From: Bacteroides sp.
GTDB taxonomy: Bacteria > Bacteroidota > Bacteroidia > Bacteroidales > Bacteroidaceae
Assembly (NCBI GenBank): GCA_017471925.1
Contig: JAFURM010000055.1
Coordinates: forward strand, 114,938 to 178,937
Direction: 5' to 3'
Length of the DNA stretch: 64,000 nt
Numbering within the stretch: position 1 is the first letter of the stretch; each line of letters begins with the position of its first letter. The notes beneath the pieces were generated by a model. The model saw only the letters and a list, made by a program, of their open reading frames with translations. It was not told where the DNA came from and made no database searches. This document shows positions 1,005 through 17,296 of this stretch, one piece after another. The position numbers and the translations under genes were made by a program.

Positions 1005-2834
1005 TCAGATGCTCTTCAGCAGATTGCGCAGTTTGCCTTTTTCGTATTTCTCGCCCATCTTTGTCAGGATGCCGCGCTCGTCACGATAGACGATGGGGCG
1101 GGAATACTCCATGAGATAGGCGATGTGACTCACCGGGACATCAAGCAGCAACAGTATGCAAAGGTGCATCTCACGGTCGGTAAGTCCATAGTGGTCGGCA
1201 AGCCGCGTGAGGATGTTGTTGCGGCAGGCATTCACGCCCTCGGCCAGTGTCTGCCAGTCGGTCTCGTCCATCCGGCTGTCACTCGCTTCCTTCCAACGGC
1301 AGTCGGCAATGATAAGTTGCATTTTGGTATAGGCCGGTGAATGTTCCAGGGCCTCCTTGGCCAATAACGCACGGGCCTGATGGGCCATGTCCAACCTGGA
1401 GGAAAGAGCCTGACGGGCACTCTCCACTTGGGCATCACGCTCCGCCAACTGCGCCTGCAGTAGGGTTATCTCACGTTCCTTCTGTTGCAGACTCTCCTGC
1501 AGGGTGTCATAATAAAGCCTTGCTTGTCCCTGCTGTTCCAACAGCAAAGCCCGCTGACGATGGTATTTGTAGCGATAAAAGAGACGCAGCAGGGAGAGCA
1601 CCAACAGACTGAACAACACAATCCCCACAATGGCATACTTGTAGCGAATCAGGAAGCCTTCGTAATTCTGTTTCTGCCGTTCCTTCAGGAAAGCCTCTTC
1701 CACTGCCGCCACTTGATAGTTCTGTCCGTTCGAATAGGAGCCTTTTTTGTAGATACGCACCCCTTTTATCCGCCAGTCAGGACCGCCATAAAGCCGGTCA
1801 AAATAGACAGCCGCCGAATCATATTCTCCCAAAGCGACATAGGAGCGGGCCATCAGTTCAAGCAAACGCCCATGCTGCAATCCCAGTTGTTCGGCTTGCC
1901 TGCCACAGCGCAACGCCTCCTGCTTAGCACCTGCATCCCTGCAATAATTCAGATAAAGTTCTCCCTTCAACAAAGCAAAATGCGCCTCATAGTTTTCATT
2001 ACCCGAAGCGCGGGCCAGTTCCAGCCCTTGAGTTGCCCGCTGCAACATCTCTGCTGAGTTCCAGGACCAGGCCAAACGCTGTTGCACCTCCTGCAGGGTA
2101 TAAATGGCTTCCATCCAAAGGGTCGTATCGCCCAGTTCTTGAGCCAACTGTTCGACCAGATTGTAAAGGGAGTCACACTTGACATTGACCTCGGCATGCC
2201 CATACTCCTTAGCCATATATTTATAGCTTTGCACGAGCAACCTCTTGTCGCCCGTCTCGCGGGCACATTCGGCAGCCTGGAGAAAGTAGCGGACTGCCCC
2301 ACTGGCACCATACCTGATGCGCTGTCTGAAGCCGGCAAGGAAATATACCCTCGCCTGCATAGAAGGAAGCTTCCGACGGTCGTAATAGGCCATTGCCACG
2401 TCAAGCAAGGAGTCCAACTCTGCATAAGCATCCGTAAAGTTTGGATAAGCATCTCCAATGCGATAGATACAGTCCTTCACTTGGGCTTCGGCCAGCAACA
2501 AGGCTCTGTAAGCATGGTCAGCCTCATGATGCAAAGAGTCTTCGGGGAAACGGAGCAATGCAGTAATCAGGCTGTCCAAAGGGCTTCTTTGGGTGTACTT
2601 TATATGACGCCATTCAGGGGCATCTTCTTTCGCCGGGAGATTGTTCTTATGCAACACCCAGACAAAGCTATCCTTCTTCTCTCCGGTGAAAAGGCTGTTC
2701 CACTGCAGATGCTCCTGTTGCAGCAACGAGTCAAGCTGTACCAGTCGGGACGGCATCACCGATGGCGAATCGCTACAGCCCGGAATCAGAGCCAGCGCCA
2801 CAAAAGCAATCAGAAGAATAAGGATTTTCCGCAT
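1005..2834 (-). CDS. membrane-spanning TPR-type regulator with C-terminal LuxR-like HTH (regulator 1)
   Basis: 609 aa, not matched to a named gene. I start it at 2834 (MRKILILLIAFVALALIPGC) because the longer frame would begin inside the promoter at 2856-2887. The N-terminus has a lipobox (LIPGC). Residues about 30-380 are helical, TPR-like and probably periplasmic. One membrane segment lies near 398-418 (YAIVGIVLFSLLVLSLL), followed by a basic stretch, a coiled coil (about 430-490), and a C-terminal helix-turn-helix (LTDREMHLCILLLLDVPVSH). Such proteins act as one-component transmembrane regulators in Bacteroides. It diverges from the peptide/barrel-1 pair, whose promoter carries an operator-like palindrome. 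It is paralogous to regulator 2 at 5758-7359; their last roughly 60 bases are almost identical. Target and ligand are inference. Confidence 0.88.
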   Translation of the reverse strand: MRKILILLIAFVALALIPGCSDSPSVMPSRLVQLDSLLQQEHLQWNSLFTGEKKDSFVWVLHKNNLPAKEDAPEWRHIKYTQRSPLDSLITALLRFPEDSLHHEADHAYRALLLAEAQVKDCIYRIGDAYPNFTDAYAELDSLLDVAMAYYDRRKLPSMQARVYFLAGFRQRIRYGASGAVRYFLQAAECARETGDKRLLVQSYKYMAKEYGHAEVNVKCDSLYNLVEQLAQELGDTTLWMEAIYTLQEVQQRLAWSWNSAEMLQRATQGLELARASGNENYEAHFALLKGELYLNYCRDAGAKQEALRCGRQAEQLGLQHGRLLELMARSYVALGEYDSAAVYFDRLYGGPDWRIKGVRIYKKGSYSNGQNYQVAAVEEAFLKERQKQNYEGFLIRYKYAIVGIVLFSLLVLSLLRLFYRYKYHRQRALLLEQQGQARLYYDTLQESLQQKEREITLLQAQLAERDAQVESARQALSSRLDMAHQARALLAKEALEHSPAYTKMQLIIADCRWKEASDSRMDETDWQTLAEGVNACRNNILTRLADHYGLTDREMHLCILLLLDVPVSHIAYLMEYSRPIVYRDERGILTKMGEKYEKGKLRNLLKSI

Positions 2835-2855
2835 TTCTATCTCTTTTTCGTTGGG

Positions 2856-2887
2856 CAAAGATAACGAGATTGGAGAGAATAAGCAAA
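2856..2887 (-). promoter_or_regulatory. promoter of regulator 1
   Basis: The minus strand has TTTG (2884-2887), 20 bases, then TATCTTTG (2856-2863), an almost ideal Bacteroides promoter. It sets the start of regulator 1 at 2834. Confidence 0.75.
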
Positions 2888-2963
2888 CAAAAGATTGCGA
2901 TAAGAGTTTTTTCTACTGTTCACATACACTCACCACACTACATATCAGTCACTTACGACTTCA

Positions 2964-3032
2964 TTTTACAAGTGTAAAACGCTAAAAATCATTCATTTTA
3001 CACTGCTGTAACTGATTCGCACACTAACTTCG
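2964..3032 (+). promoter_or_regulatory. operator pair and promoter for the GG-peptide/barrel-1 operon
   Basis: Site A is TTTTACAAGTGTAAAA (2964-2979), 7-base inverted arms around two bases. Site B is TTACACTGCTGTAA (2998-3011), 5-base arms around four. A -7 element TAACTTCG follows at 3025-3032, exactly 13 bases after site B. Site B therefore sits over the -33 position, which lacks TTTG, as expected for an activated promoter. The same A/B/-7 layout stands in front of barrel 2. Binding by the neighbouring regulator is inference. Confidence 0.65.
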
Positions 3033-3094
3033 TGGCAGCATATTAAAATGGTACGGGCCTGACTATTATTGTTTCATTTAAAAGATTTATCATT

Positions 3095-3310
3095 ATGAAA
3101 ACGAACAAACACCTTGGACAGATACTGTCCGAAAACGAAATGAAAGAGATTAAAGGCGGTAAAGTAAATCAAGACGAAAATCCTGATGAATTAAACTTTT
3201 GTATTGCCTGCGGAGAACGATTGGGGGACACACTAACGTATAACAAAACAAAAGGAATATACTATGTTATGTGCGCTTATTGTGGCACGCAGAATATTAT
3301 TAACAATTAA
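3095..3310 (+). CDS. double-glycine leader peptide with CxxC/CxxC zinc-ribbon-like tail
   Basis: 71 aa. The first 22 residues have the look of the Bacteroidales natural-product leader (TIGR04149-like): LGQILSENEMKEIKGG ends in GG. After GG comes an acidic linker, then two Cys pairs, CIACG and CAYCG, about 23 residues apart, as in a small zinc ribbon. It follows the operator/promoter at 2964-3032, and barrel 1 starts 35 bases after its stop, so the two are probably co-transcribed. GG leaders are normally cut by C39-peptidase ABC transporters; no such transporter, radical SAM enzyme or other maturase is visible in this window. The GG motif and the Cys pairs are seen directly; export and processing are inference. 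Confidence 0.82.
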   Translation: MKTNKHLGQILSENEMKEIKGGKVNQDENPDELNFCIACGERLGDTLTYNKTKGIYYVMCAYCGTQNIINN

Positions 3311-3345
3311 CAGCATTTGTTTAACATTCTAAGAACTGGTACATT

Positions 3346-5748
3346 ATGAAAACTTTCCTTTCCTTGGTAGGCAAATCATGCCTGTTCACGCTCCTCTTGT
3401 CAATCCCTCTTTCGCTCCATGCCCAAGCGGTGTATATCGTCAGCGGCAGTGTGCAAAGTGTCATGAGTGAACCGCTTGTCGGTGCCAATGTCCGGCTGAC
3501 TTCCGTCAAGCAGTCTGGTGATACCTACGGCATGGCCACCGATGGAAAGGGAAGTTTTGCCATCCAGTTGCCTCAAGGGGAATACAACCTGGAGATTTCT
3601 TATTTGGGCTACACCTCCTATCGGGCTTGCGTGCAAGTGAAAGGAGATGTCCGCCTACCGGTCATCAGCCTGAACGAAGAGAGCCAGATGATGGAGACAG
3701 TGGTAGTCACGGCACACACCATGACCTATAATCCCAACGGCTACGTGGCCGAGATTGCCAAGAACCCGTCCTATCGCGGCATGAGCCTAAACGAGATTCT
3801 GAAGCTTACCCCCGGTACCCACACGACCCACAACAGCGTGCAACTCTTCGGGCGCAACGTTTCCAAAATCTACCTGAACGGGCGGGAACTCCAACTGGGA
3901 GGCGAACAGTTGGTCAACTATCTGGAAACGCTCGATGCCAAGAACGTGAAGCGAATAGAGGTCATCACCGCCTCAGGGGTGGAAGAGGATGCTGTGAACA
4001 AAGGCAGAAGTGTCATCAAAATCACCACCGTCAACCCCGAGACCGGAGGTATGATGAATGCAGGAGGCAGCTACATGAACGGTGAAGACAAGCACATTCC
4101 TCTCATGAATGCCATGCTCAGGTGGCGCATCAACAAGCAGTGGGGCACCTACTTCAGCATAAACGGAGCAAAGAGCGACAGCCACACAGGCAGTTTCACC
4201 GAAACTCATTTCTATGCTACGGACAATCGTCACACGGTGGACTCACGCGGCGACAGTGACACCAAGAACCTGAATGCCACGCTCGGCCTCTCCTATGACC
4301 TGAATGCCGACAACCTCTTCTCATTGGAAGGGTTCTTCCAATACAACGAGGCAGCCCTGAAGCAAACTTCCGCCATGCACAATCTGACCAATAACAGCCA
4401 TGCGCTCCTCGCTTCCGGCCTATCGGACTACAGGCGGGGCTACCACAAGAGTAACCTCTCCTTCGGCTACACCCACAAATTTGCCTCCCAAGCCACCCTG
4501 GACATCAAGGCCGACCGTTTGGATAACCGTGTGGATGACAACGATTGGTTGCGCTACCGTTACGCCTCCGGTAAAGAAACGGGGTCTGACCGTTGGAATG
4601 ACGGGAAAAACCGGGTCTACACCCTGCGTGCCGACTACAACCGACGCTTTGAGCCATTGGCGGGAGAACTCTCCTTAGGAGCAAAATCCACCTGGTTCAC
4701 CAATGAGAGCAACACCGACTACCTGGCCATGACCGACGGGCAGTGCGACGAAACGGGCAGCTACCAAGACCGCTACAAGTACACCGAAGACGTCTACGCC
4801 CTCTATGCCAAATATGGCTTTACTCTCAAGGCGTTCAGCATGAACCTGGGCATCCGCATGGAGCATGCCCGCATCGTCCCCCGCTCTTCCAGCAACCCCG
4901 AGCGCAACAGCAGGAACCTCTCCACCGACTTCTTTCCCGAGGTGCGCCTGAGCTACACACTGAACGAGGAGAAGGGACATAACATCAGCATCGGATATGA
5001 CCGCAGCCTGGTACGTCCCGGCATGGAGGAACTTAATCCTTTGGTCGTCCGCCTCAATGAATATAGTTACAGCATGGGCAATCCGTCGCTGAAGGCTTTC
5101 TACTACGACGCCATCAACCTGACCGGCATCTTCTACAGGAAATACTCACTGAACATATACGCTTCCTATTCGGACGACGGCATCATTGGCATCACCGAGA
5201 ATCGTGACGGCCGGCTCTACTCCACGTGTCTCAACGGTAAAGAGGAGTTCCATCTCCGTGCACACCTCAGCATTCCCGTCAGGTTCGCCAAGTGGCTGAA
5301 CGTTAGGTTCTCAAGCAGCTACAGCTACCGGAAGGAGAGCTACGAAGCAGACAAGACCAGCAACAATCATTGGTCTGTGGGCTACATGACCACCATCACG
5401 TTGCCTGCCAACTTCCGCATCAGCCACAGTCTCAGCTATCCCCTGGTAAACAGCAAGACGCTGTACGGCAAGCACATCGAGAGGCCGAACTGCAACCTCC
5501 ATGTCAACAAACTCTTCCCTAAACAACGCCTGACAGCCACCCTCATGATGGGCGACCTCTTCAACAATGACGGCAGCCGCCGCACCGATACCTTCCGTGA
5601 CGACTTCTATCAGGTGTCGCGTAACGTCTACAGCAACTTCGGCATCTCTTTCGGATTGAGATACATGTTCAACTGGGGCCGGAAATCTGCCGTCCGCCAA
5701 GGCAGTTCAGGCAACATGGAAGAGAGTGGACGCTTCGCAACAGAATGA
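3346..5748 (+). CDS. outer-membrane beta-barrel protein, TonB-dependent-receptor-like (barrel 1)
   Basis: 800 aa with a signal peptide ending LSLHAQ. Residues about 30-110 form a carboxypeptidase-D regulatory-like domain (VSGSVQSVMSEPLVGANVRL). A TonB-box-like stretch (METVVVTA) and a plug-like region follow, then a barrel of the OMP_b-brl_3 type (PF14905) to the end. It is shorter than a SusC protein (about 1,000 aa) and no SusD accompanies it. Second gene of the operon with the GG peptide. It ends 9 bases before the convergent regulator 2. About 190 bases (roughly 4675-4868) are nearly identical to barrel 2, far above the rest of the pair, which suggests gene conversion. Transport of a small molecule or peptide across the outer membrane is the family-level expectation; the cargo is unknown. 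Confidence 0.9.
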   Translation: MKTFLSLVGKSCLFTLLLSIPLSLHAQAVYIVSGSVQSVMSEPLVGANVRLTSVKQSGDTYGMATDGKGSFAIQLPQGEYNLEISYLGYTSYRACVQVKGDVRLPVISLNEESQMMETVVVTAHTMTYNPNGYVAEIAKNPSYRGMSLNEILKLTPGTHTTHNSVQLFGRNVSKIYLNGRELQLGGEQLVNYLETLDAKNVKRIEVITASGVEEDAVNKGRSVIKITTVNPETGGMMNAGGSYMNGEDKHIPLMNAMLRWRINKQWGTYFSINGAKSDSHTGSFTETHFYATDNRHTVDSRGDSDTKNLNATLGLSYDLNADNLFSLEGFFQYNEAALKQTSAMHNLTNNSHALLASGLSDYRRGYHKSNLSFGYTHKFASQATLDIKADRLDNRVDDNDWLRYRYASGKETGSDRWNDGKNRVYTLRADYNRRFEPLAGELSLGAKSTWFTNESNTDYLAMTDGQCDETGSYQDRYKYTEDVYALYAKYGFTLKAFSMNLGIRMEHARIVPRSSSNPERNSRNLSTDFFPEVRLSYTLNEEKGHNISIGYDRSLVRPGMEELNPLVVRLNEYSYSMGNPSLKAFYYDAINLTGIFYRKYSLNIYASYSDDGIIGITENRDGRLYSTCLNGKEEFHLRAHLSIPVRFAKWLNVRFSSSYSYRKESYEADKTSNNHWSVGYMTTITLPANFRISHSLSYPLVNSKTLYGKHIERPNCNLHVNKLFPKQRLTATLMMGDLFNNDGSRRTDTFRDDFYQVSRNVYSNFGISFGLRYMFNWGRKSAVRQGSSGNMEESGRFATE

Positions 5749-5757: not shown

Positions 5758-7359
5758 TTAGATGCTCTTCAGCAGATTGCGCAGTTTGCCTTTTTCGTAT
5801 TTCTCGCCCATCTTTTTCAGGATGTTATGTTCGTTGCGATAGATGGTGGGCCGGGAGTATTCCATGAGATAGGCGATGTGGGTCACAGGCAGGTCAAGCA
5901 CCAGCAGGATGCAGAGTTGCACGTCACGGTCGGTGAGGCCATAGTGGTCGGTAAGGCGCATGAGAATGTCGTTGCGGCAAGCGTTTACGCCCTCGGACAA
6001 AGCCTGCCAGTCAGTTTCGTCCAGCTGACTGGCACTCTTCTCCTTCCACTGACAGTCGGCAATGATAAGTTGCATCTTGGTATAGGCCGGTGAATGCTCC
6101 AAGGCCTCCTTAGCCAACAATTTACGAGCCTGATTAGCCGTATCTATCTTGGCAGAAAGAATCTGTCGGTCGCTCTCCAGTTGGGCTTCGCGCTCGGCCA
6201 GCCTCTCTTGCAGGGCGGCCACCTCCCTCTCATATTGCAGCATACTGTCATGCAAAGCATTGTACAGTAATCCGGCCTTTTCCTGTTGTTCCAGCAACAG
6301 GAGACGTTGGCGACGGTATCTGCGTCTATAAAAGGCACGCAATAAGCCAAAGCCCAGGAGACTGACAGCCACGATACCCGCAATAGCATATTTGTATCGG
6401 CTAAGAAAGCCCTCATAATTCTGTTTTTGCCGTTCCTTTTGGAAAGCCTCTTCTGCTGCAGGCAGCAGATCGTTGCGAGGAGACTGATGGGCTTTCATCC
6501 ACAGGTAGTGCACTCCTCTCTCCCTCCAGTCGGAGCCTCCATAGAGTTTGTCGAAATAGAGGGCTGCCGAATCACGCTTTCCCAAAACGACATAAGACTT
6601 GGCCATAAGTTCAAGCAAATGGGCATGAAGCAGTCCCAGTTGTTCAGCCTGACGGCCATAGTCCAACGCTTCCCGAGCTGCCGCTTCATCATGGCCATAT
6701 CCCTGACAGATGATTCCCACGAGCATGGCCAACCGAGCTTCATATTCCTTGTTTCCTGATGCATGGGCCAGTTTGATACCATACTTGGCCTCACGCATTA
6801 TCTTTTCCCGATCCACCTGCCATGCTGAACGGTTCCGGATATCCAGACAAGTATAGATGGCCTCCACCCAAAGGGCTGTGTCGGCCAGTTCTTGAGCCAA
6901 TTGTCCGGCCAAGTGATAGAGAGAATCGCTTTTGGAATCTATTCTTGCATAGTAATAGCTCCGCCCCATATATTGGTAGGTGTGTGCCAACAACTGTTTG
7001 TCACCCGCCTCTTGCGCATAGGCAGCAGCCCAAAGAAAACTTTTCATAGCATCATATGGGTTACTTTCATTGCGATGTCTGAGAGCGCAAAGGAAATGAA
7101 TCCGTGCCTGCATGGCCGGCAACTTCCGACTGTCATAATAAGCCATTGCCTCCAGGTATAGGGAGTCTTCGGAAAAATGCTGCAAGACATTCATCAGACT
7201 GTCCAAAGCTCCCTTTTGAGAACATTCCGTTGTCTGCTGTTGCAACAGCGAGTCAAGTTGCACCAGCCGAGGCGACATCTTGTGAGATATCGAATCGGTA
7301 CAAGCTGTAATCAGGCCCGACAGCATGAGGATGAACAATACGGTGAGGAAGTTTCGCAT
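5758..7359 (-). CDS. membrane-spanning TPR-type regulator with C-terminal LuxR-like HTH (regulator 2)
   Basis: 533 aa, a shorter paralogue of regulator 1. The start at 7359 (MRNFLTVLFILMLSGLITAC) gives a signal with lipobox LITAC; a longer frame would begin within the promoter. TPR-like helices fill about 25-310, with one membrane segment near 321-341 (AIAGIVAVSLLGFGLL), a coiled coil, and a C-terminal HTH (LTDRDVQLCILLVLDLPVTH). It diverges from barrel 2, as regulator 1 does from barrel 1, so the two pairs look like a tandem duplication of about 4.5 kb. Compared with regulator 1 it lacks a stretch near the N-terminus. Control of barrel 2 is inferred from position and from the shared operator layout. 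Confidence 0.88.
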   Translation of the reverse strand: MRNFLTVLFILMLSGLITACTDSISHKMSPRLVQLDSLLQQQTTECSQKGALDSLMNVLQHFSEDSLYLEAMAYYDSRKLPAMQARIHFLCALRHRNESNPYDAMKSFLWAAAYAQEAGDKQLLAHTYQYMGRSYYYARIDSKSDSLYHLAGQLAQELADTALWVEAIYTCLDIRNRSAWQVDREKIMREAKYGIKLAHASGNKEYEARLAMLVGIICQGYGHDEAAAREALDYGRQAEQLGLLHAHLLELMAKSYVVLGKRDSAALYFDKLYGGSDWRERGVHYLWMKAHQSPRNDLLPAAEEAFQKERQKQNYEGFLSRYKYAIAGIVAVSLLGFGLLRAFYRRRYRRQRLLLLEQQEKAGLLYNALHDSMLQYEREVAALQERLAEREAQLESDRQILSAKIDTANQARKLLAKEALEHSPAYTKMQLIIADCQWKEKSASQLDETDWQALSEGVNACRNDILMRLTDHYGLTDRDVQLCILLVLDLPVTHIAYLMEYSRPTIYRNEHNILKKMGEKYEKGKLRNLLKSI

Positions 7360-7489: not shown

Positions 7490-7546
7490 TTACAAATGTA
7501 AACCTACTACTTTACACTTCTGTAACGTTATTCTCCCTTAACTTTG
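7490..7546 (+). promoter_or_regulatory. operator pair and promoter for barrel 2
   Basis: Site A TTACAAATGTAA (7490-7501) and site B TTACACTTCTGTAA (7512-7525) are followed after 13 bases by TAACTTTG (7539-7546). Site B to -7 spacing equals that in front of the GG peptide. The A-to-B distance is 22 bases here and 32 there, a difference of one helical turn. Confidence 0.65.
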
Positions 7547-7570: not shown

Positions 7571-9952
7571 ATGAAAACCATTCGCATTCTGATTCCGTTC
7601 TTTTGGCTGATGCATTTGTCTCTCCATGCCCAAGTCCTGCATAACGTCAGTGGCAGCGTGCAGTCCACAGCGGGCGAGTCACTTATCGGTGCCCACGTTC
7701 GCCTGATTCGCGCGGGACAGGAGAATCAAAGCCACGTCATGGCCACCGACGGGCATGGCCGTTTTCTGTTGCAGGTGTCCAAGGGAGAATATGCCTTGGA
7801 AATCTCCTATATCGGCCATGCCAAATATATAGCAACCGTGCAAGTAGTCGGTGATGTCCGCCTGCCCGTCATCAATCTGAATGAGGACAGCCAGTTGATG
7901 GAAACTGTGGTAATAACAGCACGCACCGTAACCTACAATCCCAACGGTTATGTAGCCGAGATTGCCAAGAATCCGCTCTATCACAACATGGACCTGAATG
8001 AAATCCTGAAGTTCACTCCTGGTACCTATACAACCCTTACCGGTGTGCAACTCTTCGGACGCAACGTTTCCAAAATCTACCTGAACGGGCGGGAACTTCG
8101 TCTGCAGGGCGAACAGCTGGTCAAATACTTAGAGACGCTCCATGCCAAAGACGTGAAGCATATTGAGGTCATTGCTGCCTCTGGTGTGGAAGAGGATGCC
8201 GAGAGGCAAGGCCAAAGCATCCTTAAAATCACCACCATCAATCCTGAGACGGGTGGCATGATGGCCATTGTAGGTGGCACCACCCAGGGTGAAGAGAAGA
8301 GCCTCTATACCCTTTCCTCCAACATGAACTGGCGCATCAACAAGCAGTGGGGAACCTACCTCCGCGTAAATACGGGAAAGAGCGACCGCGAACAGGGCGA
8401 ACTCACCGAGACCCATTTCCACACGACCGACAGCCGACGCGCCGTAAAGTCGGTCATGGACAATGAGGCCATGAACTATAGTGCGCTGTTCGGCCTCTCC
8501 TATGACTTGGATGCCAACAATCTCTTCTTCATAGAGGCTTCTTGTGGCCGAAACGGAAACAGCAGGCAGCAAACCTCAACGACCCGCAACTTGGCCGACG
8601 ACCATTACACAGACATTGCCTCCGGTTCGTCAGACCATGAACGCACCTACCGCAAAAACAATCTCTCCCTCGGTTACACCCGCAAGTTTGCTTCCCAGGC
8701 CACCCTGAACATCAAGGCTGACCGACTGGAGAACCGTGTGGATGATGACGAGTTGCAGTTCTATCAATACACCACCGCAGCAAGAAGAGACTTCGACCGT
8801 TGGAACGACGAGAAAAACCTGGTCTATACCCTCCGTGCAGACTATAGCCAACGTTTCAAACCGCTGAACAGCCGTCTCTCCTTAGGGGCAAAATCCACCT
8901 GGTTCAGCAATGAGAGCAACACCGACTACCTGGCCACGACCGACGGGCAGCGCGACGAAACGGGCAGCTACCAAGACCGCTACAAGTACACCGAAGACAT
9001 CTACGCTCTCTATGCCAAATATGGCTTCACCCTCAAGGCGTTCAGCATGAACCTGGGCATCCGCATGGAGCATGCCCACATCGCTCCCCGCTCTTCCAGC
9101 AACCCCGATCGCAATGGCAGGAACATCTCCACCGATTTCTTCCCCGAGGTGCGCCTGAACTACACACTGAACAAAGAGAAAGGTCATAACATCAGCCTGG
9201 GCTACAACCGCAGTCTGTCGCGTCCCGGCATGCAGAGTCTCAATCCTTTGATTGTCCGTCTCAATGAATACAGCTACAGCATGGGGAATCCCTTGTTGGA
9301 GGCTAACTATACTGACCGAGTCTCCCTAATGGCCACCCTCTTCGACAAGTACATCCTGGAAGCATATTGGAGCCATAGGAAGAACGGGACAATGGGTATT
9401 ATCGAGAACCGCGACGGCAGACTCTACTCCACCTATACCAACGGTGCAAAAGAAAACACCTGTTATGCCTATTTAATGCTTCCCGTGAAGGTTGGCAAAT
9501 GGTTGAATGTCCGTCTCAGCGGCTCTTGCCGATTCAGTGAGCACAGTTATGGAGCAGACGAAAGCCGGAACTTCTACTGGTCTACCGGCTACTTTGCCTC
9601 CATCACCCTGCCCGCCAATTTCCGCATCAGCCACGACTTGTTCTATACCAGTTCCTCCAAGGGATTATATTCCTCTTTTCAAGAGCCTCTGACAAGCAAT
9701 GTCCACATCAACAAGACCTTCCCTAAACTGCGTCTGAGTGTTACCCTTGCGTTTGTCGACATCTTCAACTGTCAAGGCGGTTATCAAAGAGATTCCTTCC
9801 GCGATGACTTCTACCAGACGCTGCGTGGCAACTACAACAACCGTTCCGTTCTGCTTAGCCTCAGCTATCGTCTCAACTGGGGCCGGAAATCCGCCGTCCG
9901 CCAAGGCAGTTCGGGCAACACTGAAGAGAGCGGACGCTTCGCAAAGGAGTAG
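7571..9952 (+). CDS. outer-membrane beta-barrel protein, TonB-dependent-receptor-like (barrel 2)
   Basis: 793 aa, paralogue of barrel 1, in the same order: signal peptide (to LSLHAQ), regulatory-like beta-sandwich domain (VSGSVQSTAGESLIGAHVRL), TonB-box-like METVVITA, plug-like part, OMP_b-brl_3 barrel, and the shared C-terminus WGRKSAVRQGSSGN. It stands 25 bases after a promoter with the same operators as barrel 1, but no small peptide gene lies between. Its promoter region diverges from regulator 2. It converges with barrel 3 (30-base gap). The part around 8877-9070 is nearly identical to barrel 1. Cargo unknown. Confidence 0.9.
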   Translation: MKTIRILIPFFWLMHLSLHAQVLHNVSGSVQSTAGESLIGAHVRLIRAGQENQSHVMATDGHGRFLLQVSKGEYALEISYIGHAKYIATVQVVGDVRLPVINLNEDSQLMETVVITARTVTYNPNGYVAEIAKNPLYHNMDLNEILKFTPGTYTTLTGVQLFGRNVSKIYLNGRELRLQGEQLVKYLETLHAKDVKHIEVIAASGVEEDAERQGQSILKITTINPETGGMMAIVGGTTQGEEKSLYTLSSNMNWRINKQWGTYLRVNTGKSDREQGELTETHFHTTDSRRAVKSVMDNEAMNYSALFGLSYDLDANNLFFIEASCGRNGNSRQQTSTTRNLADDHYTDIASGSSDHERTYRKNNLSLGYTRKFASQATLNIKADRLENRVDDDELQFYQYTTAARRDFDRWNDEKNLVYTLRADYSQRFKPLNSRLSLGAKSTWFSNESNTDYLATTDGQRDETGSYQDRYKYTEDIYALYAKYGFTLKAFSMNLGIRMEHAHIAPRSSSNPDRNGRNISTDFFPEVRLNYTLNKEKGHNISLGYNRSLSRPGMQSLNPLIVRLNEYSYSMGNPLLEANYTDRVSLMATLFDKYILEAYWSHRKNGTMGIIENRDGRLYSTYTNGAKENTCYAYLMLPVKVGKWLNVRLSGSCRFSEHSYGADESRNFYWSTGYFASITLPANFRISHDLFYTSSSKGLYSSFQEPLTSNVHINKTFPKLRLSVTLAFVDIFNCQGGYQRDSFRDDFYQTLRGNYNNRSVLLSLSYRLNWGRKSAVRQGSSGNTEESGRFAKE

Positions 9953-9981: not shown

Positions 9982-12417
9982 TCATTCCGTCGTGAAACGA
10001 CCCATTTCGTCCTGGTTTCCACTGCCTCCTCTACGCACATTGGACTTCTGCCCCCAACGGAGTGTGTAACGGCCACCGATGCTGAAGTGGAAGGTGTTGA
10101 AGCGCGAGGCTGTGTCGTTAGAATAGGTGTCATACACATAGCTGCTGCGCAATCCGCCATTGCTGTTGAAGAGGTCGGAGAACCTGACGAATAGATTCAA
10201 GGATCGGTTGAAGAGGCTCTTGCTCACCTGGAAGTTGGCCGACACATTGCGGCGGGTCTCTCCATACATGGTGCGGATGGGAGTACTGTGGTCCACCTCG
10301 GCCGTTACGTTGAACTCACCGGGCAAGCGGAAGAGGGCATTGCAGCTCAGGTTCCATGCGCTATTATCGGAGGTTTGTCCCAAGTGGTCATACTTGGTGT
10401 AGGAATAGTCGGCAGAGAAGTTCAGACGTCCCCACTTGCCCAATGTCACCGGAATACCGGCATAAATGCTGTAAGCAGCCCATTTCATTCCGTTCACGGG
10501 GGAAGTGTAGATAACACCGTCCGTCTCCTCCGAGTAGAGCATGGGCACTCCTTTGGAATAGGTATGACTGAATACCAGGCTGTACGAATTGAACCATACA
10601 CTCCTCAGTGCATACCGATCGATGGTTGCAGGCTCCAGCAAAAGATTACCCTTCAGATAGCTGTACTCATTCACTTGTTTGACGTAAGGATTCAGGTCGT
10701 ACAGATTGGGGCGTGAAATGGAGCGGGTATACTGGAGTGACAGGTTGTGTCCCTTCTCTCTGTTCAGCGCATAGTGCAAACCGAGTTCGGGTGCCAGGTC
10801 GGTGTGTGTCGTCTCATAATCTGTGGGCAACTCACCGGCAGGAGAAAGCAACGCATGCTCCACGCGCAAACCGGCCGTCACGTCTACCTGCTTTATCCGA
10901 AACACATACTTGGCATAGGCTGCATAGACCTCCTCTTCGCAATTGTACTGATAGGAGCGGTCAGTATTCAGCAGAGGCGCATCAGTGGGATAAAGCTCAA
11001 AATCATGACTTATCTCTTGAAACTTATAGCGAGAGAATATGTCGGAAGCGAGATTGGTGTATTTCACACCTGCAGTAAACGTGCTGTTCCGCTCTCTGAA
11101 GCGCCCCGTATAGTCCAGTCGGAGGGTGTACACCATATTATCTTCGCGGTTCTTATCAGTATTCATATGGTCTCTTTCATCTTCATCGGTGTAGTCATAA
11201 TAGTTCTCGTCCACTTGTTTGTTCTTCTTGTGGAAACGGTCGGCGCGGAAAGAGAGTTCATGATCCTTGTTGAACCGATGCAGATAGTTGAAGGAGAAGT
11301 TGGTTTGCCAATGGCGGTTTTTGCCGGTTTGTATGCCTTCCGAGCTATTCATCCAGCCGTTCTCGGGTGAAAATTCCTGCACTTCGTCTGTAGTCCGCAG
11401 CTTGCTCCGACGGTTGATGTAGGATGCCTCTATGGAGAACATGTTTCGCTCATCCAGGTCATAGCTCAGCCCCATCAGGCCACGATAGGAGCCATTCAAC
11501 TTGTACTTCCCTTCCTGGTCGTGTTGCAGACGGGTGTCGCTATCGAAGAGATGAGTGTTGCTCATGCTTCCTTTGGGAAGGGAGAGGAAGGTGGCCATCC
11601 CGTTGGCATAGAAGCCCCACTTCCTGCTCAGGCGCAGGTTCAGGTTCACGTTAGGTGCATGAGAATATCTGCCGCCCTCGCCATAGAGGATGGAGACATC
11701 TCCTACGTTCAGCATACCACCGGTCTCGGGATTCCGAGTGGTAATCTTGATGATGGAAGTGCCCATAGCAGAGGCATCCTCCTCCACGCCCGAAGCGGCA
11801 ATGACCTCCATCTGCTTCACGTTCTTCCCTTCGATGGTCTCTAAGTAGCTAATCAGTTGTTCTCCTCCCAGTTGGAGTTCACGTCCGTTCAGGTAGATTT
11901 TGGAAACAGTCTTGCCATAAACCTTGATTTGGTTGTGGGCAGTGGTGGTGCCCGGCAAGAGTTTCAACACGGTGTTCAGGTCTTGCTCACGATAGAACGG
12001 ATTCTTGGCAACCTCGGCCACATAACCGTTGGGGCTATAAGTCACAGTGCGGGCAGTAACCACCACGGCATCCGTCTGTTGGCTCTCTTCGCTCAGCGTG
12101 ATGGCCGGCAAGTGAATCGGGGCATTCACCTGCACGGTGGAAAAGTGGCTGGCATAACCCACGTAGGAGATTTCAAGGGCATATTCCCCTTGTGGCAGGC
12201 GGAGGGAGTAACGGCCCTCTTTGTCCGTAGCCATACCGTAGAGTTCAGTGGAACGGTTCGGATGGGTCAGTCGGACATTGGCACCGGCAAGCGGTTCGCC
12301 TGTAGCAGACTGTACGCTGCCGCTGACGGCATAGGTCACTTGGGCACACAGATGCAAAGGCATCAGCAGGAGGAGCAGCAGGCTCAGGCTGGCAATCAGG
12401 AAGCGAATGGTTTTCAT
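9982..12417 (-). CDS. outer-membrane beta-barrel protein, TonB-dependent-receptor-like (barrel 3)
   Basis: 811 aa with a signal peptide (leucine run ending MPLHLCAQ), regulatory-like domain (VSGSVQSATGEPLAGANVRL), plug-like part and an OMP_b-brl_3 type barrel ending WGQKSNVRRGGSGN. It keeps the family layout but is more diverged from barrels 1 and 2 in the barrel. It is the only member without a regulator next to it. Its -7 element is TGACTTTG at 12444-12451, with a TGTCACAGGTGTC element upstream that only weakly resembles the operators of the other copies. It could be served by one of the nearby regulators or be an orphan. Confidence 0.9.
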   Translation of the reverse strand: MKTIRFLIASLSLLLLLLMPLHLCAQVTYAVSGSVQSATGEPLAGANVRLTHPNRSTELYGMATDKEGRYSLRLPQGEYALEISYVGYASHFSTVQVNAPIHLPAITLSEESQQTDAVVVTARTVTYSPNGYVAEVAKNPFYREQDLNTVLKLLPGTTTAHNQIKVYGKTVSKIYLNGRELQLGGEQLISYLETIEGKNVKQMEVIAASGVEEDASAMGTSIIKITTRNPETGGMLNVGDVSILYGEGGRYSHAPNVNLNLRLSRKWGFYANGMATFLSLPKGSMSNTHLFDSDTRLQHDQEGKYKLNGSYRGLMGLSYDLDERNMFSIEASYINRRSKLRTTDEVQEFSPENGWMNSSEGIQTGKNRHWQTNFSFNYLHRFNKDHELSFRADRFHKKNKQVDENYYDYTDEDERDHMNTDKNREDNMVYTLRLDYTGRFRERNSTFTAGVKYTNLASDIFSRYKFQEISHDFELYPTDAPLLNTDRSYQYNCEEEVYAAYAKYVFRIKQVDVTAGLRVEHALLSPAGELPTDYETTHTDLAPELGLHYALNREKGHNLSLQYTRSISRPNLYDLNPYVKQVNEYSYLKGNLLLEPATIDRYALRSVWFNSYSLVFSHTYSKGVPMLYSEETDGVIYTSPVNGMKWAAYSIYAGIPVTLGKWGRLNFSADYSYTKYDHLGQTSDNSAWNLSCNALFRLPGEFNVTAEVDHSTPIRTMYGETRRNVSANFQVSKSLFNRSLNLFVRFSDLFNSNGGLRSSYVYDTYSNDTASRFNTFHFSIGGRYTLRWGQKSNVRRGGSGNQDEMGRFTTE

Positions 12418-12986: not shown

Positions 12987-13065
12987 ACATGTGTGGACAA
13001 AGGACGGAACATGTGTGGACGAAGGGCGGGACATGTGTGGACGAAGGGCGGGACATGTGTGGTCC
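12987..13065. repeat. 22-bp-period tandem repeat, copy 1 of a dispersed family
   Basis: Three units of 22 bases and a partial fourth begin with ACATGTGTGG at 12987, 13009, 13031 and 13053. The second and third are identical and the first differs in a few positions. The same core and period recur at 31198-31285 and 52023-52175. Confidence 0.8.
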
Positions 13066-13190: not shown

Positions 13191-13286
13191 TTACATCTGG
13201 AGACTGTAATAGCGCATGGCCTCCATCCAATTCCTACCGGCTGCGGTAAGGAGTTGCTTGAATGAACGGGTAACTCTCTTTGTCAT
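13191..13286 (-). CDS. 31-aa small peptide (peptide 3)
   Basis: A 31-codon frame begins MTKRVTRSFKQLL and ends MRYYSLQM. The first half is basic and amphipathic, the tail aromatic. It lies 49 bases downstream of a sister peptide of exactly the same length on the same strand. AAGG stands 4 bases before its ATG, a weak ribosome-binding site. The pair shares the promoter at 13505-13512. I do not recognise it; a signalling, bacteriocin-like or membrane-active peptide would fit the composition. Evidence is modest and rests on the context of the better-supported sister gene. Confidence 0.5.
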   Translation of the reverse strand: MTKRVTRSFKQLLTAAGRNWMEAMRYYSLQM

Positions 13287-13335
13287 AACCTTAAAAATTA
13301 AATTAAGAATCTAATACCTGAAAACTAAAATACCT

Positions 13336-13431
13336 TTAAAACGGGTTGCGCATGCCACCAAGCATCACATAACCCCAGACCTCTACGTCTGTCTTTTCCA
13401 ATTGCTTCATAATCTTCTTGAACATTTTCAT
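13336..13431 (-). CDS. 31-aa small peptide with GG motif (peptide 2)
   Basis: The frame starts MKMFKKIMKQLEKTDVE and ends VMLGGMRNPF. A near-perfect ribosome-binding site, AAGGAGGA, precedes the ATG at 13431. A -7 element TATCTTTG lies 73 bases upstream of the ATG. These make it likely to be a real gene despite its length. The N-terminal half is a basic amphipathic helix like a leader; the GG near the end leaves a five-residue tail, MRNPF, which could be a released short peptide, though this is speculation. It diverges from barrel 4 and regulator 3. No homologue recognised. Confidence 0.65.
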   Translation of the reverse strand: MKMFKKIMKQLEKTDVEVWGYVMLGGMRNPF

Positions 13432-13587: not shown

Positions 13588-13634
13588 TAACACGGCGTTT
13601 CTGACACTTCTGCTACAAAAAAAATGCAAATAAG

Positions 13635-13678
13635 ACACTTGTAAGACACTGCAGAAGCTGTTTCCCACGCTATTTTTG
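13635..13678 (+). promoter_or_regulatory. operator-like element and promoter of barrel 4
   Basis: ACACTTGTAA (13635-13644) equals part of the reverse complement of site A of barrel 1. AGACACTGCAGAAG (13644-13657) aligns with site B and is again 13 bases before the -7, here TATTTTTG (13671-13678). About 19 of the 25 bases from ACACTGC to the -7 agree with the barrel 1 promoter. Confidence 0.55.
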
Positions 13679-13705
13679 CCTCATAAACCCAATTAAGAAC
13701 ACACA

Positions 13706-16132
13706 ATGACAACAAGACGAAAACAGGAAGGACTTCCGATAGCCATGCGACTTTTCCTGCTATTTGCCGGCATGGGCATCCTGACAGCAAACGGCCTCCA
13801 TGCTCAGAACGAGCAACGCTTCTCCCTGAGCGGACAGGTACAGTCTACGCATGGCTGTCCGTTGCCTGGTGCCCATGTGAAACTCACGGGCAGGCACGCT
13901 GACGGTCAATGGTATGGCATGGCGGCCGATAGCGTCGGACGTTTTTCCCTTCTATTGCCATCCGGGACCTATCAGCTGGAGATTTCTTTCGTAGGTTATG
14001 CCACCCACGCCGCAACCGTGGAGATAAAGGAGGAGGTCCGCCTACCGCTCATCCGACTGCAGGAAGAGAGCAAGATGATGGAGGAGGTGGTGGTGACGGC
14101 CCGCACCGTGACCTATCACAGTAAAGGTTATGTGGCCGACATAGCTGCCAATCCCCGCTTCCGCAACAAGCATCTTGACGAGGTGCTCAATGCCTTGCCC
14201 GGTATCTCCGTCTCCGAACAGAAGGGGCTGCAAGTCTATGGCGAAGGAGTAAGAGAGGTCTACCTGAACGGCCACAAACTGCGCATGAATGGTACAGAGC
14301 TATCGAACTACCTGAAGACACTGGATGCCAGGCAGGTGAAGCAGGTGGAAGTGGTGAGCGACTCAGGCGTAGAGGAAGCGGCCGCTTCCATGGGAGGCAG
14401 CATCATCCGGATTACGGCCCCCAACCCCGAAACAGGCGGACGGCTCAACCTCTCGGCCAGGAACCTCACCGGACGTAACCAGCACACCTATGGTCTCACT
14501 GCCGCCACACAGGTGAGGCTCAGCAAGGCGTGGGGAGCCTACTTCCGTGGCGGCACATTCGACGGCTGGCGGCGCGACGGCAGCCGCACGGTGACAACAT
14601 TTCATGAGACGGGCGAACAGCGTGTTTATGAATCGACCGGCAAGCGCAACACCCGCCACAACTACAACTTCAACGGCGGTTTCACCTTTGACCCTGATGC
14701 ACGCAACCTCTTTGCCCTGGATGCCTCCTACAACACCAACAAGGCTTCCGTCCCCCACCATCACACCACAGTCCAATGGTTAGAGGGAACATGCCTGCCC
14801 GTAGCAAGTGGCGGTATGGACAAGGAGCGTACCTACCAACGAGCCAACTTCTCCCTGAGCTATACCCGAAAGTTGGAGGACAACGGCAGACTGGACGTAA
14901 AGGCCGGCTATCTGCTGAACACTGTGGACGACGATGAATACCAACGGTTTGACTACACCGATAGCGACCGCCTGCAACACAACCAGCTGACGTTTGAAAG
15001 AAATCGTGCCTTCAATTTCCGCACGGACTACAAGCGTCCCCTGGATTTCCTGAACAGTACATTCACGGCCGGAATCTCCTATCTTCGTTTGCATAACGAG
15101 GATGACACCGACTATGTCCTGCTGCATAATGATGAACGCGACAACCGGCGTAGCTACACCGACCTATACAGCTATCGGGAGGAGGTGATGGCTGCCTATG
15201 CCGACTATGCCTTCAAGATGAAACGGTTCAGTTTCAGCCTAGGACTGCGCATAGAGCATTCCGACATTTCGCCACGCTCTTCCACCAATCCCGAGCGAAA
15301 CCAGGACAACCGCTATACAGACTTTTTCCCCGGCGCGAACCTCTCCTATTCCCTGAACAAAGAGAAGGGACACAACCTGCGGCTGGCCTATAACCGCACC
15401 ATCTCACGCCCCAGGATGTCGGAGTTGAACCCTTTAGTGAGACGCCTCAGCGAATACAGCTACACCACAGGAAATCCTCTGCTGGAAGCATCATACGGCC
15501 ATCACCTGACGCTGACCTCCACCTGGTTTGACCAATATATCCTGCGCATAAAATATTCCCGATACAGAAACGGTACCGTGTCCGTGGTGGAAAACCGGGA
15601 AGGAAGCATTTGGAACTCCTACCAAAACGGGAACAAGGGGAAATGGCTGTCGGTTTATGCCGAAGTGCCCGTAACGTTAGGCAACTGGGGAAACCTGCGT
15701 CTCTCTGCCTACTATAGACATGCCAACAACCATTTCCAAGCACACAGGAACAGCTCCAACAACTGGCTTCTTCAAGCCTCGGGCAACTTCCGCCTACCAG
15801 GCAACATCACCTTTTCTGCCTCCTGTGCCCACAACTTCTATTCACGCGGCCTCTACACCAAACAACTCTCACGCCCCAATGTAGACTGTTCGCTCAACAA
15901 GAGCTTTCCTCGAAGCGGATGGCGTGCCGGATTGACCTTCATGGACCTCTTCAACTCCTGGAACTGTGGCAGCGAGTCTTTCAACCACGACTTCTATCAA
16001 CGCACCGGCAGCACCACTCACAACTTCATCGTGGCACTCACCCTAAACTACACACTTCGATGGGGGCAGAAGAGCAACGTACGCCAAAGCGTTTCCGATA
16101 GCCCCGGAAGCCAAAGAATTGAGACACAATAA
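13706..16132 (+). CDS. outer-membrane beta-barrel protein, TonB-dependent-receptor-like (barrel 4)
   Basis: 808 aa. The signal peptide extends to NGLHAQ after a longer basic N-terminus, followed by the regulatory-like domain (LSGQVQSTHGCPLPGAHVKL), TonB-box-like EEVVVTA, plug-like part and OMP_b-brl_3 barrel. It ends RWGQKSNVRQSVSDS, so it lacks the common SSGN.EESGRF tail of barrels 1 and 2. It is followed by regulator 3 on the same strand after 63 bases, and diverges from the two 31-aa peptide genes. The promoter shares the operator-like element of barrels 1 and 2. Cargo unknown. Confidence 0.9.
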   Translation: MTTRRKQEGLPIAMRLFLLFAGMGILTANGLHAQNEQRFSLSGQVQSTHGCPLPGAHVKLTGRHADGQWYGMAADSVGRFSLLLPSGTYQLEISFVGYATHAATVEIKEEVRLPLIRLQEESKMMEEVVVTARTVTYHSKGYVADIAANPRFRNKHLDEVLNALPGISVSEQKGLQVYGEGVREVYLNGHKLRMNGTELSNYLKTLDARQVKQVEVVSDSGVEEAAASMGGSIIRITAPNPETGGRLNLSARNLTGRNQHTYGLTAATQVRLSKAWGAYFRGGTFDGWRRDGSRTVTTFHETGEQRVYESTGKRNTRHNYNFNGGFTFDPDARNLFALDASYNTNKASVPHHHTTVQWLEGTCLPVASGGMDKERTYQRANFSLSYTRKLEDNGRLDVKAGYLLNTVDDDEYQRFDYTDSDRLQHNQLTFERNRAFNFRTDYKRPLDFLNSTFTAGISYLRLHNEDDTDYVLLHNDERDNRRSYTDLYSYREEVMAAYADYAFKMKRFSFSLGLRIEHSDISPRSSTNPERNQDNRYTDFFPGANLSYSLNKEKGHNLRLAYNRTISRPRMSELNPLVRRLSEYSYTTGNPLLEASYGHHLTLTSTWFDQYILRIKYSRYRNGTVSVVENREGSIWNSYQNGNKGKWLSVYAEVPVTLGNWGNLRLSAYYRHANNHFQAHRNSSNNWLLQASGNFRLPGNITFSASCAHNFYSRGLYTKQLSRPNVDCSLNKSFPRSGWRAGLTFMDLFNSWNCGSESFNHDFYQRTGSTTHNFIVALTLNYTLRWGQKSNVRQSVSDSPGSQRIETQ

Positions 16133-16166
16133 ATCTGGATTACGCGGATAAAACGAATAAATCCAT

Positions 16167-16174
16167 TACTTTTG
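16167..16174 (+). promoter_or_regulatory. -7 element of regulator 3
   Basis: TACTTTTG fits TAnnTTTG and lies 21 bases before the start at 16196, so regulator 3 can be transcribed apart from barrel 4. Confidence 0.5.
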
Positions 16175-16195
16175 CAGAAATTTGTGGAAAAGACT

Positions 16196-17296
16196 ATGCG
16201 TAAAATACTTCTATATTTCTTTTTAATGCCCTTGCTGGGAGTGGTGTCCTGCAATGAAAGCCCCGTATCGGCCGAAGCCGGTCAAGAAGCGATAGAGAAT
16301 CACGGTACAAGGCTACTCAACCTGGCAAACAGCTACAGAAGCCTTTACCTGTACGAAAAGAGCAGGGAAATCCCCCTGGCTGAAATAGACTCCTTGTTCT
16401 GCCTGGCCGAGGAATGGGGACGCGAGCAACAGGACACCGCATTCTGGATAGAGGCCCTGCTGTTGCATGCCAAAACGGGGCTGACGAAATGGGAGAAAAA
16501 GGTTGAGATGTCGGAACTGGCTCTGAGCCTGGCACGCAACGCAAGAAACCGGAAATGGGAGCATGAGGCACTGGTGGGACTGATGGGCTGCTATATAGGA
16601 GCGGACAATGCAAAGTTTCGCACCTATGCCGAGCAACGTCTGCACATGCTAATGGATACGCTGCCGGAACACTCCATCTACATGAACCGCGCTACCATCT
16701 ACCAATATATAGGGATGAAAGACTCGGCAAGGTATTGCCGGCACATGGCTGATTCCCTCTCCGTTGTCTACAAGGCAGAGCAGAAGAGACGTGCGGAACG
16801 AGCCGTCCAGTGGCGCAACGGGCTGTTGCTACTGGCTTTCCTGCTGGCCGGAGCGGCCCTCTGTTACACCTATTGCAAACTGAAAAGAAGAGAGAGGGAA
16901 CTGCAGGAACTGAAAAAACGGCTGGAGATGTTGGCTTCCGAGAGTAGCGTATGCACCAAGATAAAGCAGATTATCAACGACTTCCGCCAATACGAAAAGT
17001 CCGATAGTTGCATGACCGATGAAGACTGGCGGCAGCTGTTGAGCGAACAGGATGCCCAATGCGGCGGCCTGCTCTCCCGCCTGCACCAGCAACACAATCT
17101 CTCCCTCGCCGAACTCTCCATCTGCTGCCTCTGCCTGCTCGGCATACCGGCCTCCTACCAGCGTTATCTCCTGGAATGTTCACGCGATTCGGTCTATCGC
17201 AAGCAATATGCCATACTGGAACGCATGGGTATTCCCCGCAAATCCATTGCCTTGAAGGATTACCTGAATGGCATGAAGAGTGGAAAGTGTTCTTGA
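16196..17296 (+). CDS. membrane-spanning regulator with C-terminal HTH (regulator 3, short form)
   Basis: 366 aa, start set at MRKILLYFFLMPLLGVVSC, which gives a lipobox (GVVSC). The helical periplasmic part (about 25-200) is much shorter than in regulators 1 and 2. One membrane segment lies near 208-227 (LLLLAFLLAGAALCYTYC), followed by a coiled coil and a C-terminal HTH-like region (LSLAELSICCLCLLGIPAS). The ending differs from the shared KGKLRNLLKSI of the other two. It lies downstream of barrel 4 rather than divergent from it. By family it should be a transmembrane one-component regulator of its barrel; ligand unknown. Confidence 0.85.
   Translation: MRKILLYFFLMPLLGVVSCNESPVSAEAGQEAIENHGTRLLNLANSYRSLYLYEKSREIPLAEIDSLFCLAEEWGREQQDTAFWIEALLLHAKTGLTKWEKKVEMSELALSLARNARNRKWEHEALVGLMGCYIGADNAKFRTYAEQRLHMLMDTLPEHSIYMNRATIYQYIGMKDSARYCRHMADSLSVVYKAEQKRRAERAVQWRNGLLLLAFLLAGAALCYTYCKLKRRERELQELKKRLEMLASESSVCTKIKQIINDFRQYEKSDSCMTDEDWRQLLSEQDAQCGGLLSRLHQQHNLSLAELSICCLCLLGIPASYQRYLLECSRDSVYRKQYAILERMGIPRKSIALKDYLNGMKSGKCS

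What the first reader, a model, noticed from the sequence alone, without database searches (positions are those of the whole stretch)
1005..17296. Cluster of four barrel paralogues, three transmembrane regulators and small peptides: candidate undescribed system
Seen directly: four related 793-811 aa outer-membrane barrels, three regulators of one type (lipobox, TPR-like part, one membrane segment, C-terminal HTH), and three small peptide genes, interleaved in 16 kb. No SusD and no enzymes are with them. Known: TPR-containing regulators in Firmicutes (RRNPP) bind peptides; TonB-type barrels move small ligands. Inference: the periplasmic TPR part may sense a peptide or barrel-borne cue and switch on barrel and peptide genes, forming a signalling or peptide-transport circuit. 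The diversity of paralogues would suit ligand specificity.
Basis: partly seen in the sequence, partly recalled or inferred. Interest (0 to 1): 0.72.

Follow-up and report, generated by a model that had tools for sequence, protein, structure and literature searches.

The report
Receptor genes sharing a membrane-spanning switch
A Bacteroides-type genome carries a cluster of outer-membrane receptor genes next to membrane-spanning switch proteins, and the same kind of switch, with a matching DNA site, often sits beside small secreted-peptide genes in related species, which points to an uncharacterised, possibly peptide-linked control circuit.

Summary
The cluster is real: four PF14905 outer-membrane barrels, three lipobox-TPR-TM regulators with an HTH-like end, and one double-glycine (GG) peptide. 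The other two small ORFs are genuine, but belong to an older genus-wide locus (pepD - p1 - p2 - A2M) that the cluster interrupts. New evidence: (1) A direct repeat, KACAC-N6-KACAC, lies upstream of barrels on three contigs of this genome. In other genus genomes the exact repeat lies within 400 bp after the stop of 16 of 60 same-family regulators (0 of 60 before the start), usually 20-21 bp before a TAnnTTTG box. (2) In 20 of 55 regulator regions elsewhere a C39-peptidase exporter or VKOR fusion is a neighbour, usually with a GG peptide (controls 0 of 40); four more have a radical-SAM maturase, a precursor-like ORF and a related barrel. (3) A second locus here is GG peptide - barrel - barrel - C39 exporter, without a regulator. 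Best reading: a one-component periplasmic sensor/activator family that often serves small-peptide loci and here drives an expanded receptor set. Ligand, peptide direction and DNA binding are inferred.

The parts
1005..2834 (-). R1: lipobox, predicted periplasmic TPR part, TM segment, C-terminal HTH-like regulator (609 aa from the ATG)
2999..3032 (+). candidate promoter element: TACAC half-site, 21 bp, TAACTTCG (-7-like box), in the R1|GG divergent region; only the proximal half-site is well kept
3095..3310 (+). GG-leader peptide, 71 aa, two CxxC pairs; directly in front of B1 on the same strand
3346..5748 (+). B1: PF14905 outer-membrane barrel, TonB-box-like ETVVVTA
5758..7359 (-). R2: regulator, 60% identical to R1
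7513..7546 (+). candidate promoter element: TACAC half-site, 21 bp, TAACTTTG, upstream of B2
7571..9952 (+). B2: PF14905 barrel, tandem duplicate of B1
9982..12417 (-). B3: PF14905 barrel; no element found upstream
13634..13649 (+). full direct repeat GACACTTGTAAGACAC upstream of B4; TATTTTTG box 21 bp further on (13671-13678)
13706..16132 (+). B4: PF14905 barrel
16196..17296 (+). R3: short, divergent regulator directly downstream of B4
13336..13431 (-). p1: 31-aa genus-conserved small protein; NOT part of the barrel system (interrupted older locus)
13191..13286 (-). p2: 31-aa partner of p1; NOT part of the barrel system
17448..19010 (-). pepD (aa-His dipeptidase), flank of the interrupted locus

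Best explanation
The cluster is an apparently lineage-specific expansion of a one-component, membrane-spanning regulatory module. Each regulator is anchored at its N-terminus (lipobox), exposes a TPR domain to the periplasm, crosses the inner membrane once and ends in a cytoplasmic DNA-binding domain. It probably binds a direct repeat (KACAC-N6-KACAC, one helical turn apart) placed 20-21 bp before a Bacteroides-type TAnnTTTG box and activates the neighbouring operon. In relatives that operon is often a small-peptide locus (GG peptide with C39 exporter and thiol-redox proteins). In this lineage it is a TonB-type PF14905 receptor, once led by a GG peptide gene. The most likely job is peptide-linked: the receptor brings a small peptide (own or foreign) to the periplasm, the TPR part senses it or its carrier, and expression of the matching receptor rises. 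Shown: gene content, TPR similarity, neighbourhood statistics, recurring DNA element with fixed spacing. Inferred: topology, binding of the element by the regulator, activation rather than repression, peptide as the ligand, import direction.
For: Barrels are PF14905 with carboxypeptidase-like N-domain, and all 9 close own-genome barrels keep [DE]x(0-2)VV[VI]TA, a TonB-box-like motif (the consensus is recalled). TPR: the A6 profile hits consensus TPR chains at 4e-34 and RapF at 3.5e-5. Element: ACAC repeated at 11 bp in 4 of 9 own upstream regions, 0 of 100 shuffle sets reach 4; seven periods were tried. Test on other genomes: exact KACAC-N6-KACAC 21 hits in 769,647 bases of regulator regions, 1 in 460,812 bases of controls, 1 in 595,536 bases of C39-exporter regions; 16 of 60 regulators within 400 bp after the stop, 0 of 60 before the start. 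Composite with TAnnTTTG at 20-21 bp: 13 of 60, expected 0.31; own genome 5 of 9. Neighbours: C39 exporter or VKOR fusion in 20 of 55 regulator regions, 0 of 40 control regions, Fisher p 4e-6. Own contig C11: GG peptide - barrel - barrel - C39 exporter. Regulator + rSAM + precursor-like ORF + barrel in L165, L167, L184, L185.
Against: Four of five own-genome loci with regulator and barrel show no GG ORF, nor do three barrel-regulator pairs in other genomes (L108, L113, L118). The GG-Cys peptide model found nothing in 197 other genomes. The C11 operon, the best peptide-barrel-exporter case, has neither regulator nor element nearby. B3 and the C58c locus lack the element; B1 and B2 keep only one good half-site and are tandem copies, so not independent. 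At the rSAM-barrel loci the element was not found, bar one one-mismatch hit on the opposite strand in L185, and the two barrels scanned there fall below the PF14905 cut-off or miss it. Barrels are not enriched beside C39 exporters in the order (4 of 40 against 4 of 55 in regulator regions and 0 of 20). 35 of 55 regulator regions have neither C39 exporter nor VKOR fusion. The DNA-binding end has no convincing match. Related species share 16-mers (6 distinct among the 17 sites kept), so counts overstate independence. Controls were barrel and p1 regions, shorter than regulator regions (median 11 against 15 kb), not random draws.
Confidence: 0.55

Rival explanations
1. Ordinary nutrient uptake: SusR-like periplasmic sensors switching on SusD-less TonB receptors for a sugar, metal or dietary peptide. 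The GG peptide at B1 is incidental.
For: SusR is also a membrane protein with a periplasmic sensor and C-terminal HTH that activates a TonB transporter operon (PMC3878776, passages). PF14905 barrels are common in the genus (56 of 60 genomes at E<=1e-40); 20 sampled barrel regions show no C39 exporter, no VKOR fusion and no A4-type regulator, and three of them (L108, L113, L118) have a related C58c-type regulator without a GG ORF. Four of five own-genome regulator-barrel loci lack a GG ORF.
Against: No SusD and no glycan enzyme among the seven cluster proteins. The A4-type regulator family often sits beside peptide export or maturation genes elsewhere. SusR sites are reported as direct repeats 67 or 77 bp apart, unlike the 11-bp period here. 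Homology to SusR was not tested.
Confidence: 0.25
2. Competition circuit: the barrels are immunity, decoy or recognition receptors for GG-type bacteriocins of kin or rivals, and the regulators report their arrival.
For: Relatives of the regulator stand beside MACPF (L151) and bacteroidetocin-like loci with GG peptide, thiol-redox proteins and C39 exporter (gene set compared with PMC6671954, passages). Paralogue diversity suits recognition (inference).
Against: No killing gene was recognised among the cluster proteins. Bacteroidetocins are reported to target BamA (PMC8546649, title and abstract in the search listing), not this barrel type.
Confidence: 0.12
3. The PF14905 barrels are the outer-membrane exit for peptides exported by the C39 transporter.
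For: C11 has barrel-barrel-C39, and a BLAST with one HlyD reference found no HlyD on that contig, while 38 of 40 order-level C39 regions have one. PMC10352776 (section 3.2 read) reports clusters with PCAT and OMP but no MFP.
Against: TonB-box-like motif in 9 of 9 suggests energised import; barrels are not enriched next to C39 exporters; of the nine close barrels only the two on C11 have an exporter in the stretches fetched.
Confidence: 0.08

Closest known systems
BT3442 family (NCBIfam NF053779; TPR protein beside a MACPF cluster in B. thetaiotaomicron, PMC2954219)
   Same: Sequence relationship (R3 22.6 bits, two relatives 83 and 91 bits); TPR protein at the edge of a surface/lipoprotein cluster.
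   Different: Far below the 940-bit cut-off; no regulatory role or DNA site was mentioned for BT3442 in the passages read; cargo here is barrels and a GG peptide.
SusR-like regulators
   Same: Membrane one-component regulator, periplasmic sensor, C-terminal HTH next to TonB transporter genes.
   Different: TPR sensor, no SusD or glycan enzymes, 11-bp direct repeat instead of 67/77-bp spacing. Homology not tested.
Bacteroidetocin loci
   Same: GG-leader, Cys-containing peptide, C39 exporter, thiol oxidoreductase; resembles the regulator-linked loci of relatives.
   Different: 22-residue leader here against 15-16; no exporter in the cluster; no VKOR-fusion match in this 89% complete genome (no positive control); barrels and regulators are extra.
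Bacteroidales RiPP clusters with TPR genes (BGC2 and BGC9 of PMC10352776)
   Same: That paper already notes TPR-domain genes in two of nine clusters and cites pheromone binding as precedent.
   Different: No membrane-spanning HTH architecture, operator or regulator-barrel pairing is described in the section read.
RRNPP peptide-sensing regulators
   Same: TPR sensor; the profile hits RapF weakly.
   Different: RRNPP proteins work in the cytoplasm (recalled); here the TPR part is predicted periplasmic, with a TM segment and a C-terminal DNA-binding end.

Membership tests
PF14905 (OMP_b-brl_3) | score above gathering cut-off (27 bits) | tested here: met
   214-239 bits for all four barrels
TonB-dependent receptor | TonB box near N-terminus | tested here: inconclusive
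   [DE]x(0-2)VV[VI]TA in 9 of 9 barrels; consensus recalled
SusCD / PUL | SusD partner and glycan enzymes | tested here: not met
   no such Pfam or NCBIfam match among the seven large cluster proteins
SusR-like regulator | sequence homology to SusR (BT3705) | not tested
   SusR sequence not fetched; only topology compared
SusR-like regulator | operator: direct repeats 67 or 77 bp apart | tested here: inconclusive
   an 11-bp period repeat was found instead; 67/77-bp spacing itself was not scanned
BT3442 family (NF053779) | score above 940 bits | tested here: not met
   R3 22.6 bits; R1 and R2 not listed at E<=10
RRNPP | TPR peptide-binding domain | tested here: inconclusive
   TPR similarity met; peptide binding not testable here
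RRNPP | soluble cytoplasmic protein | tested here: not met
   N-terminal signal/lipobox and internal TM segment by hydropathy
Bacteroidetocin | 15-16 aa GG leader, at least 2 Cys, neighbouring C39 exporter | tested here: not met
   22-aa leader, 4 Cys, no exporter in the cluster; the C11 relative has one
TIGR04149 GG RiPP precursor | score above 25 bits | tested here: not met
   13.4 bits for the window peptide; a relative's peptide (L087) scores 32.4

The most novel reading that the evidence does not exclude
A Gram-negative peptide-pheromone loop spanning two membranes: a Cys-rich GG or radical-SAM peptide is exported, returns through its own dedicated TonB-type barrel, and is read in the periplasm by a TPR domain joined through the membrane to a DNA-binding domain that activates the cognate receptor. 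This would be RRNPP-like sensing moved outside the cytoplasm, with paralogous barrel-regulator pairs acting as separate recognition channels.
Probability: 0.22. Interest if true: 0.86.

Novelty: new variant of a known kind. Interest (0 to 1): 0.62.

Why it matters
I know of no described dedicated regulator for the GG-peptide and bacteroidetocin-like loci of Bacteroides (recalled; the ten paper searches, seen mostly as listings, brought none up). A regulator family with a predicted DNA site at fixed distance from the promoter makes their control directly testable and gives a handle for finding unannotated peptide loci. If the ligand is a peptide, it would be a rare case of periplasmic peptide sensing by a one-component regulator in Bacteroidota (recalled).

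Tried and rejected
A shared dyad ACA-N2-TGT upstream of B1-B4 looked striking, but 6.2% of shuffle sets share some dyad, so it was dropped as evidence. KACANNTGTR is over-represented in the window (15 against 6.1 expected), but was defined after seeing the sites and includes a 22-bp tandem repeat.

The two 31-aa ORFs as peptides of the system: rejected; p1 is found in 57 of 149 genus genomes, and pepD and/or A2M lie in 19 of the 20 fetched p1 regions.

Barrel-exporter linkage across the order: tested on 40 fetched C39 regions (110 of 295 genomes had a match); not enriched.

Mobile origin: no match to R2 or R1 in plasmids, only 7 distant barrel matches there, none in viral contigs.

Absence of close barrels in other genomes is weak evidence: at most 16 or 6 first-look candidates per genome were scored. 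The one genome-contig scan found a single relative.

GG ORFs were called with a loose pattern. By eye L094, L187 and one of three in L159 are spurious among regulator regions, and L116 and L143 among controls.
Full report
OBSERVATION. The window is G000:C35:114938-178937 of a 2.87 Mb, 89% complete genome. A genome of the same genus (G217) carries a contig of the same length as a Bacteroides propionicigenes contig (566,890), so the genus is almost certainly Bacteroides (inference). Four ORFs are PF14905 barrels with CarbopepD_reg N-domains, three are regulators, and 3095-3310+ encodes a 71-aa peptide with leader ...LSENEMKEIKGG and two CxxC pairs. R1|GG-B1 and R2|B2 are a tandem duplication.

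WHAT THE REGULATORS ARE. A Cys near residue 20 is kept in at least 90% of 44 aligned regulators. The first two window regulators have a hydrophobic N-terminus ending near that Cys and a second hydrophobic stretch at 401 and 325; the third has them at its start and at 209; each also has a weaker hydrophobic window in its C-terminal part. The profile hits TPR structures strongly and RapF weakly. The C-terminal 125 aa align across 34 members but give only scattered weak HTH matches and no convincing PDB relative, so DNA binding rests on those hits and on the conserved DNA element. R1, R2 and the C15 and C58b regulators form one clade (100/100); R3 and C58a are long branches whose place is unsure.

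WHAT THE BARRELS ARE. Five further close paralogues lie on contigs C11, C15 and C58. All nine keep a TonB-box-like motif. Regulator and barrel are neighbours at C15, C58a and C58b, and, with a more distant pair, at C58c.

SMALL PEPTIDES. The GG peptide has a homologue (35% identity overall, identical over EMKEIKGG) in front of two barrels and a C39-peptidase ABC transporter on contig C11. A second C39 transporter, with a weak HlyD match and its own GG ORF, lies on C44. No GG ORF was found in the fetched stretches of C15, C58a, C58b and C58c. The two 31-aa ORFs are different. p1 matches 57 of 149 genus genomes at E<=0.1. In 20 fetched regions, p1 was found in 20, p2 in 10, pepD in 17, A2M in 16, and both pepD and A2M in 14. 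In the window the order on the minus strand is pepD, then B4-R3 (opposite strand), p1, p2, then B3 to R1, then A2M just left of the window (L028). The cluster therefore interrupts this locus on both sides of p1-p2.

NEIGHBOURHOODS ELSEWHERE. A4-type regulators (E<=1e-15) occur in 45 of 149 genus genomes, this one included. I fetched 55 regions from other genomes, a selection of the places listed. With one script: C39 exporter 16, VKOR fusion (C39-like, VKOR and thioredoxin parts) 18, either 20, HlyD 9, GG pattern 17 (two regions spurious by eye), exporter and GG together 14. Control regions (20 general barrel, 20 p1) had exporter or VKOR fusion in 0 of 40 and the GG pattern in 4 of 40, of which L099 and L117 look real and lie with radical-SAM genes; Fisher p for exporter or fusion 4e-6. 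Controls were shorter (median 11 against 15 kb). Barrels (profile A7, E<=1e-40) were present in 4 of 55. Three of these (L165, L184, L185), and L167 with its barrel by BLAST only, also have a radical-SAM enzyme (Pfam for L165, L184, L185; motif only for L167) and a 71-76 aa precursor-like ORF between it and the barrel. That this ORF is a precursor is inference: two of the four were scanned and match no NCBIfam model. Of the two barrels scanned, L165 scores 23.2 bits, below the PF14905 cut-off, and L184 has no PF14905 match. L151 has a MACPF protein next to the regulator. The four nearest barrels in the genus have no regulator, GG ORF or exporter in the fetched stretch. Three of 20 general barrel regions (L108, L113, L118) hold a C58c-type regulator.

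THE DNA ELEMENT. Among nine own-genome upstream regions, ACAC repeated at 11 bp occurs in four (B4, C15, C58a, C58b); 0 of 100 shuffle sets reach four; seven periods were tried. The exact form KACAC-N6-KACAC was then looked for in other genomes: 21 hits in 769,647 bases around regulators, 1 in 460,812 control bases, 1 in 595,536 bases around order-level C39 exporters. It lies within 400 bp after the stop codon of 16 of 60 regulators, in the listing at 5-57 bp (one, L191, on the opposite strand), and before the start of 0 of 60; among regulators at E<=1e-60 it is 11 of 20. After dropping four of 21 sites, 13 of 17 have TAnnTTTG 20-21 bp downstream (that this is the Bacteroides -7 box is recalled). 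A composite search (half-site, 20-21 bp, box with at most one mismatch) finds 13 of 60 regulators against 0.31 expected, and 5 of 9 own upstream regions (gap 21 in all five) against 0.02 expected, including R1|GG and R2|B2, where only the proximal half-site is well kept. The own-genome p value is partly circular, because the half-site came from there; the other-genome exact-repeat counts are the independent test, reduced by relatedness of species (6 distinct 16-mers among 17 sites). In the window alone the exact repeat is not over-represented (1 against 0.41 expected; 9 against 10.3 with one mismatch).

MECHANISM. Most likely: periplasmic TPR sensing, transmembrane signal, binding at the repeat next to the promoter, activation of the adjacent operon. 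In relatives the operon often makes or exports a small peptide; here it is a TonB-type receptor, once with a GG peptide gene. That the ligand is a peptide follows only from association. Against it: most own-genome pairs lack a peptide gene, 35 of 55 regulator regions have neither exporter nor VKOR fusion, and the best peptide-barrel-exporter operon (C11) lacks regulator and element.

KNOWN. SusR-like regulators have the same topology but differently spaced operators (PMC3878776, passages). BT3442 is a TPR protein in a MACPF cluster (PMC2954219, passages). Bacteroidetocin loci have a similar peptide/thiol-redox/C39 set (PMC6671954, passages). A RiPP survey noted TPR genes in 2 of 9 Bacteroidales clusters and recalled pheromone-binding precedents (PMC10352776, one section and passages). 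None of the text read describes the regulator-operator module or its pairing with barrels; the ten paper searches did not bring one up, though their listings were only skimmed by title and abstract.

Noticed in passing
window 13191-13431 (-) and L129-L148: Genus-conserved family of 24-33 aa proteins (p1, a middle one, p2), mostly between pepD and an alpha-2-macroglobulin gene, in most fetched regions with a TAGGAGGATAAC-type leader before p1, unusual for Bacteroides (recalled). Function unknown.
   Followed up: partly
window 12986-13062: Three head-to-tail 22-bp repeats (GACATGTGTGGACGAAGGGCGG-like) between B3 and p2.
   Followed up: no
L026 451-939 and 5553-6041: Two ORFs with the same first 60 residues (Dps-like by eye) flank the more distant regulator-barrel pair C58c; duplication or assembly effect.
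   Followed up: no
L094 749-2434: A regulator ORF whose first residues look like the start of a C39 exporter, as if a deletion had fused the two genes.
   Followed up: no
L099 4531-13727 and L117 2173-10300: GG-type ORFs with radical-SAM enzymes beside PF14905 barrels, without this regulator type.
   Followed up: partly
L151 7240-10885: Regulator followed by a TACAC/TAnnTTTG element and a MACPF gene, suggesting the same switch may serve an antibacterial-type protein.
   Followed up: partly
window 57231-57323: ARAGORN calls a tRNA-His inside the opposite strand of a long ORF (56310-59744-); may be a false call.
   Followed up: no
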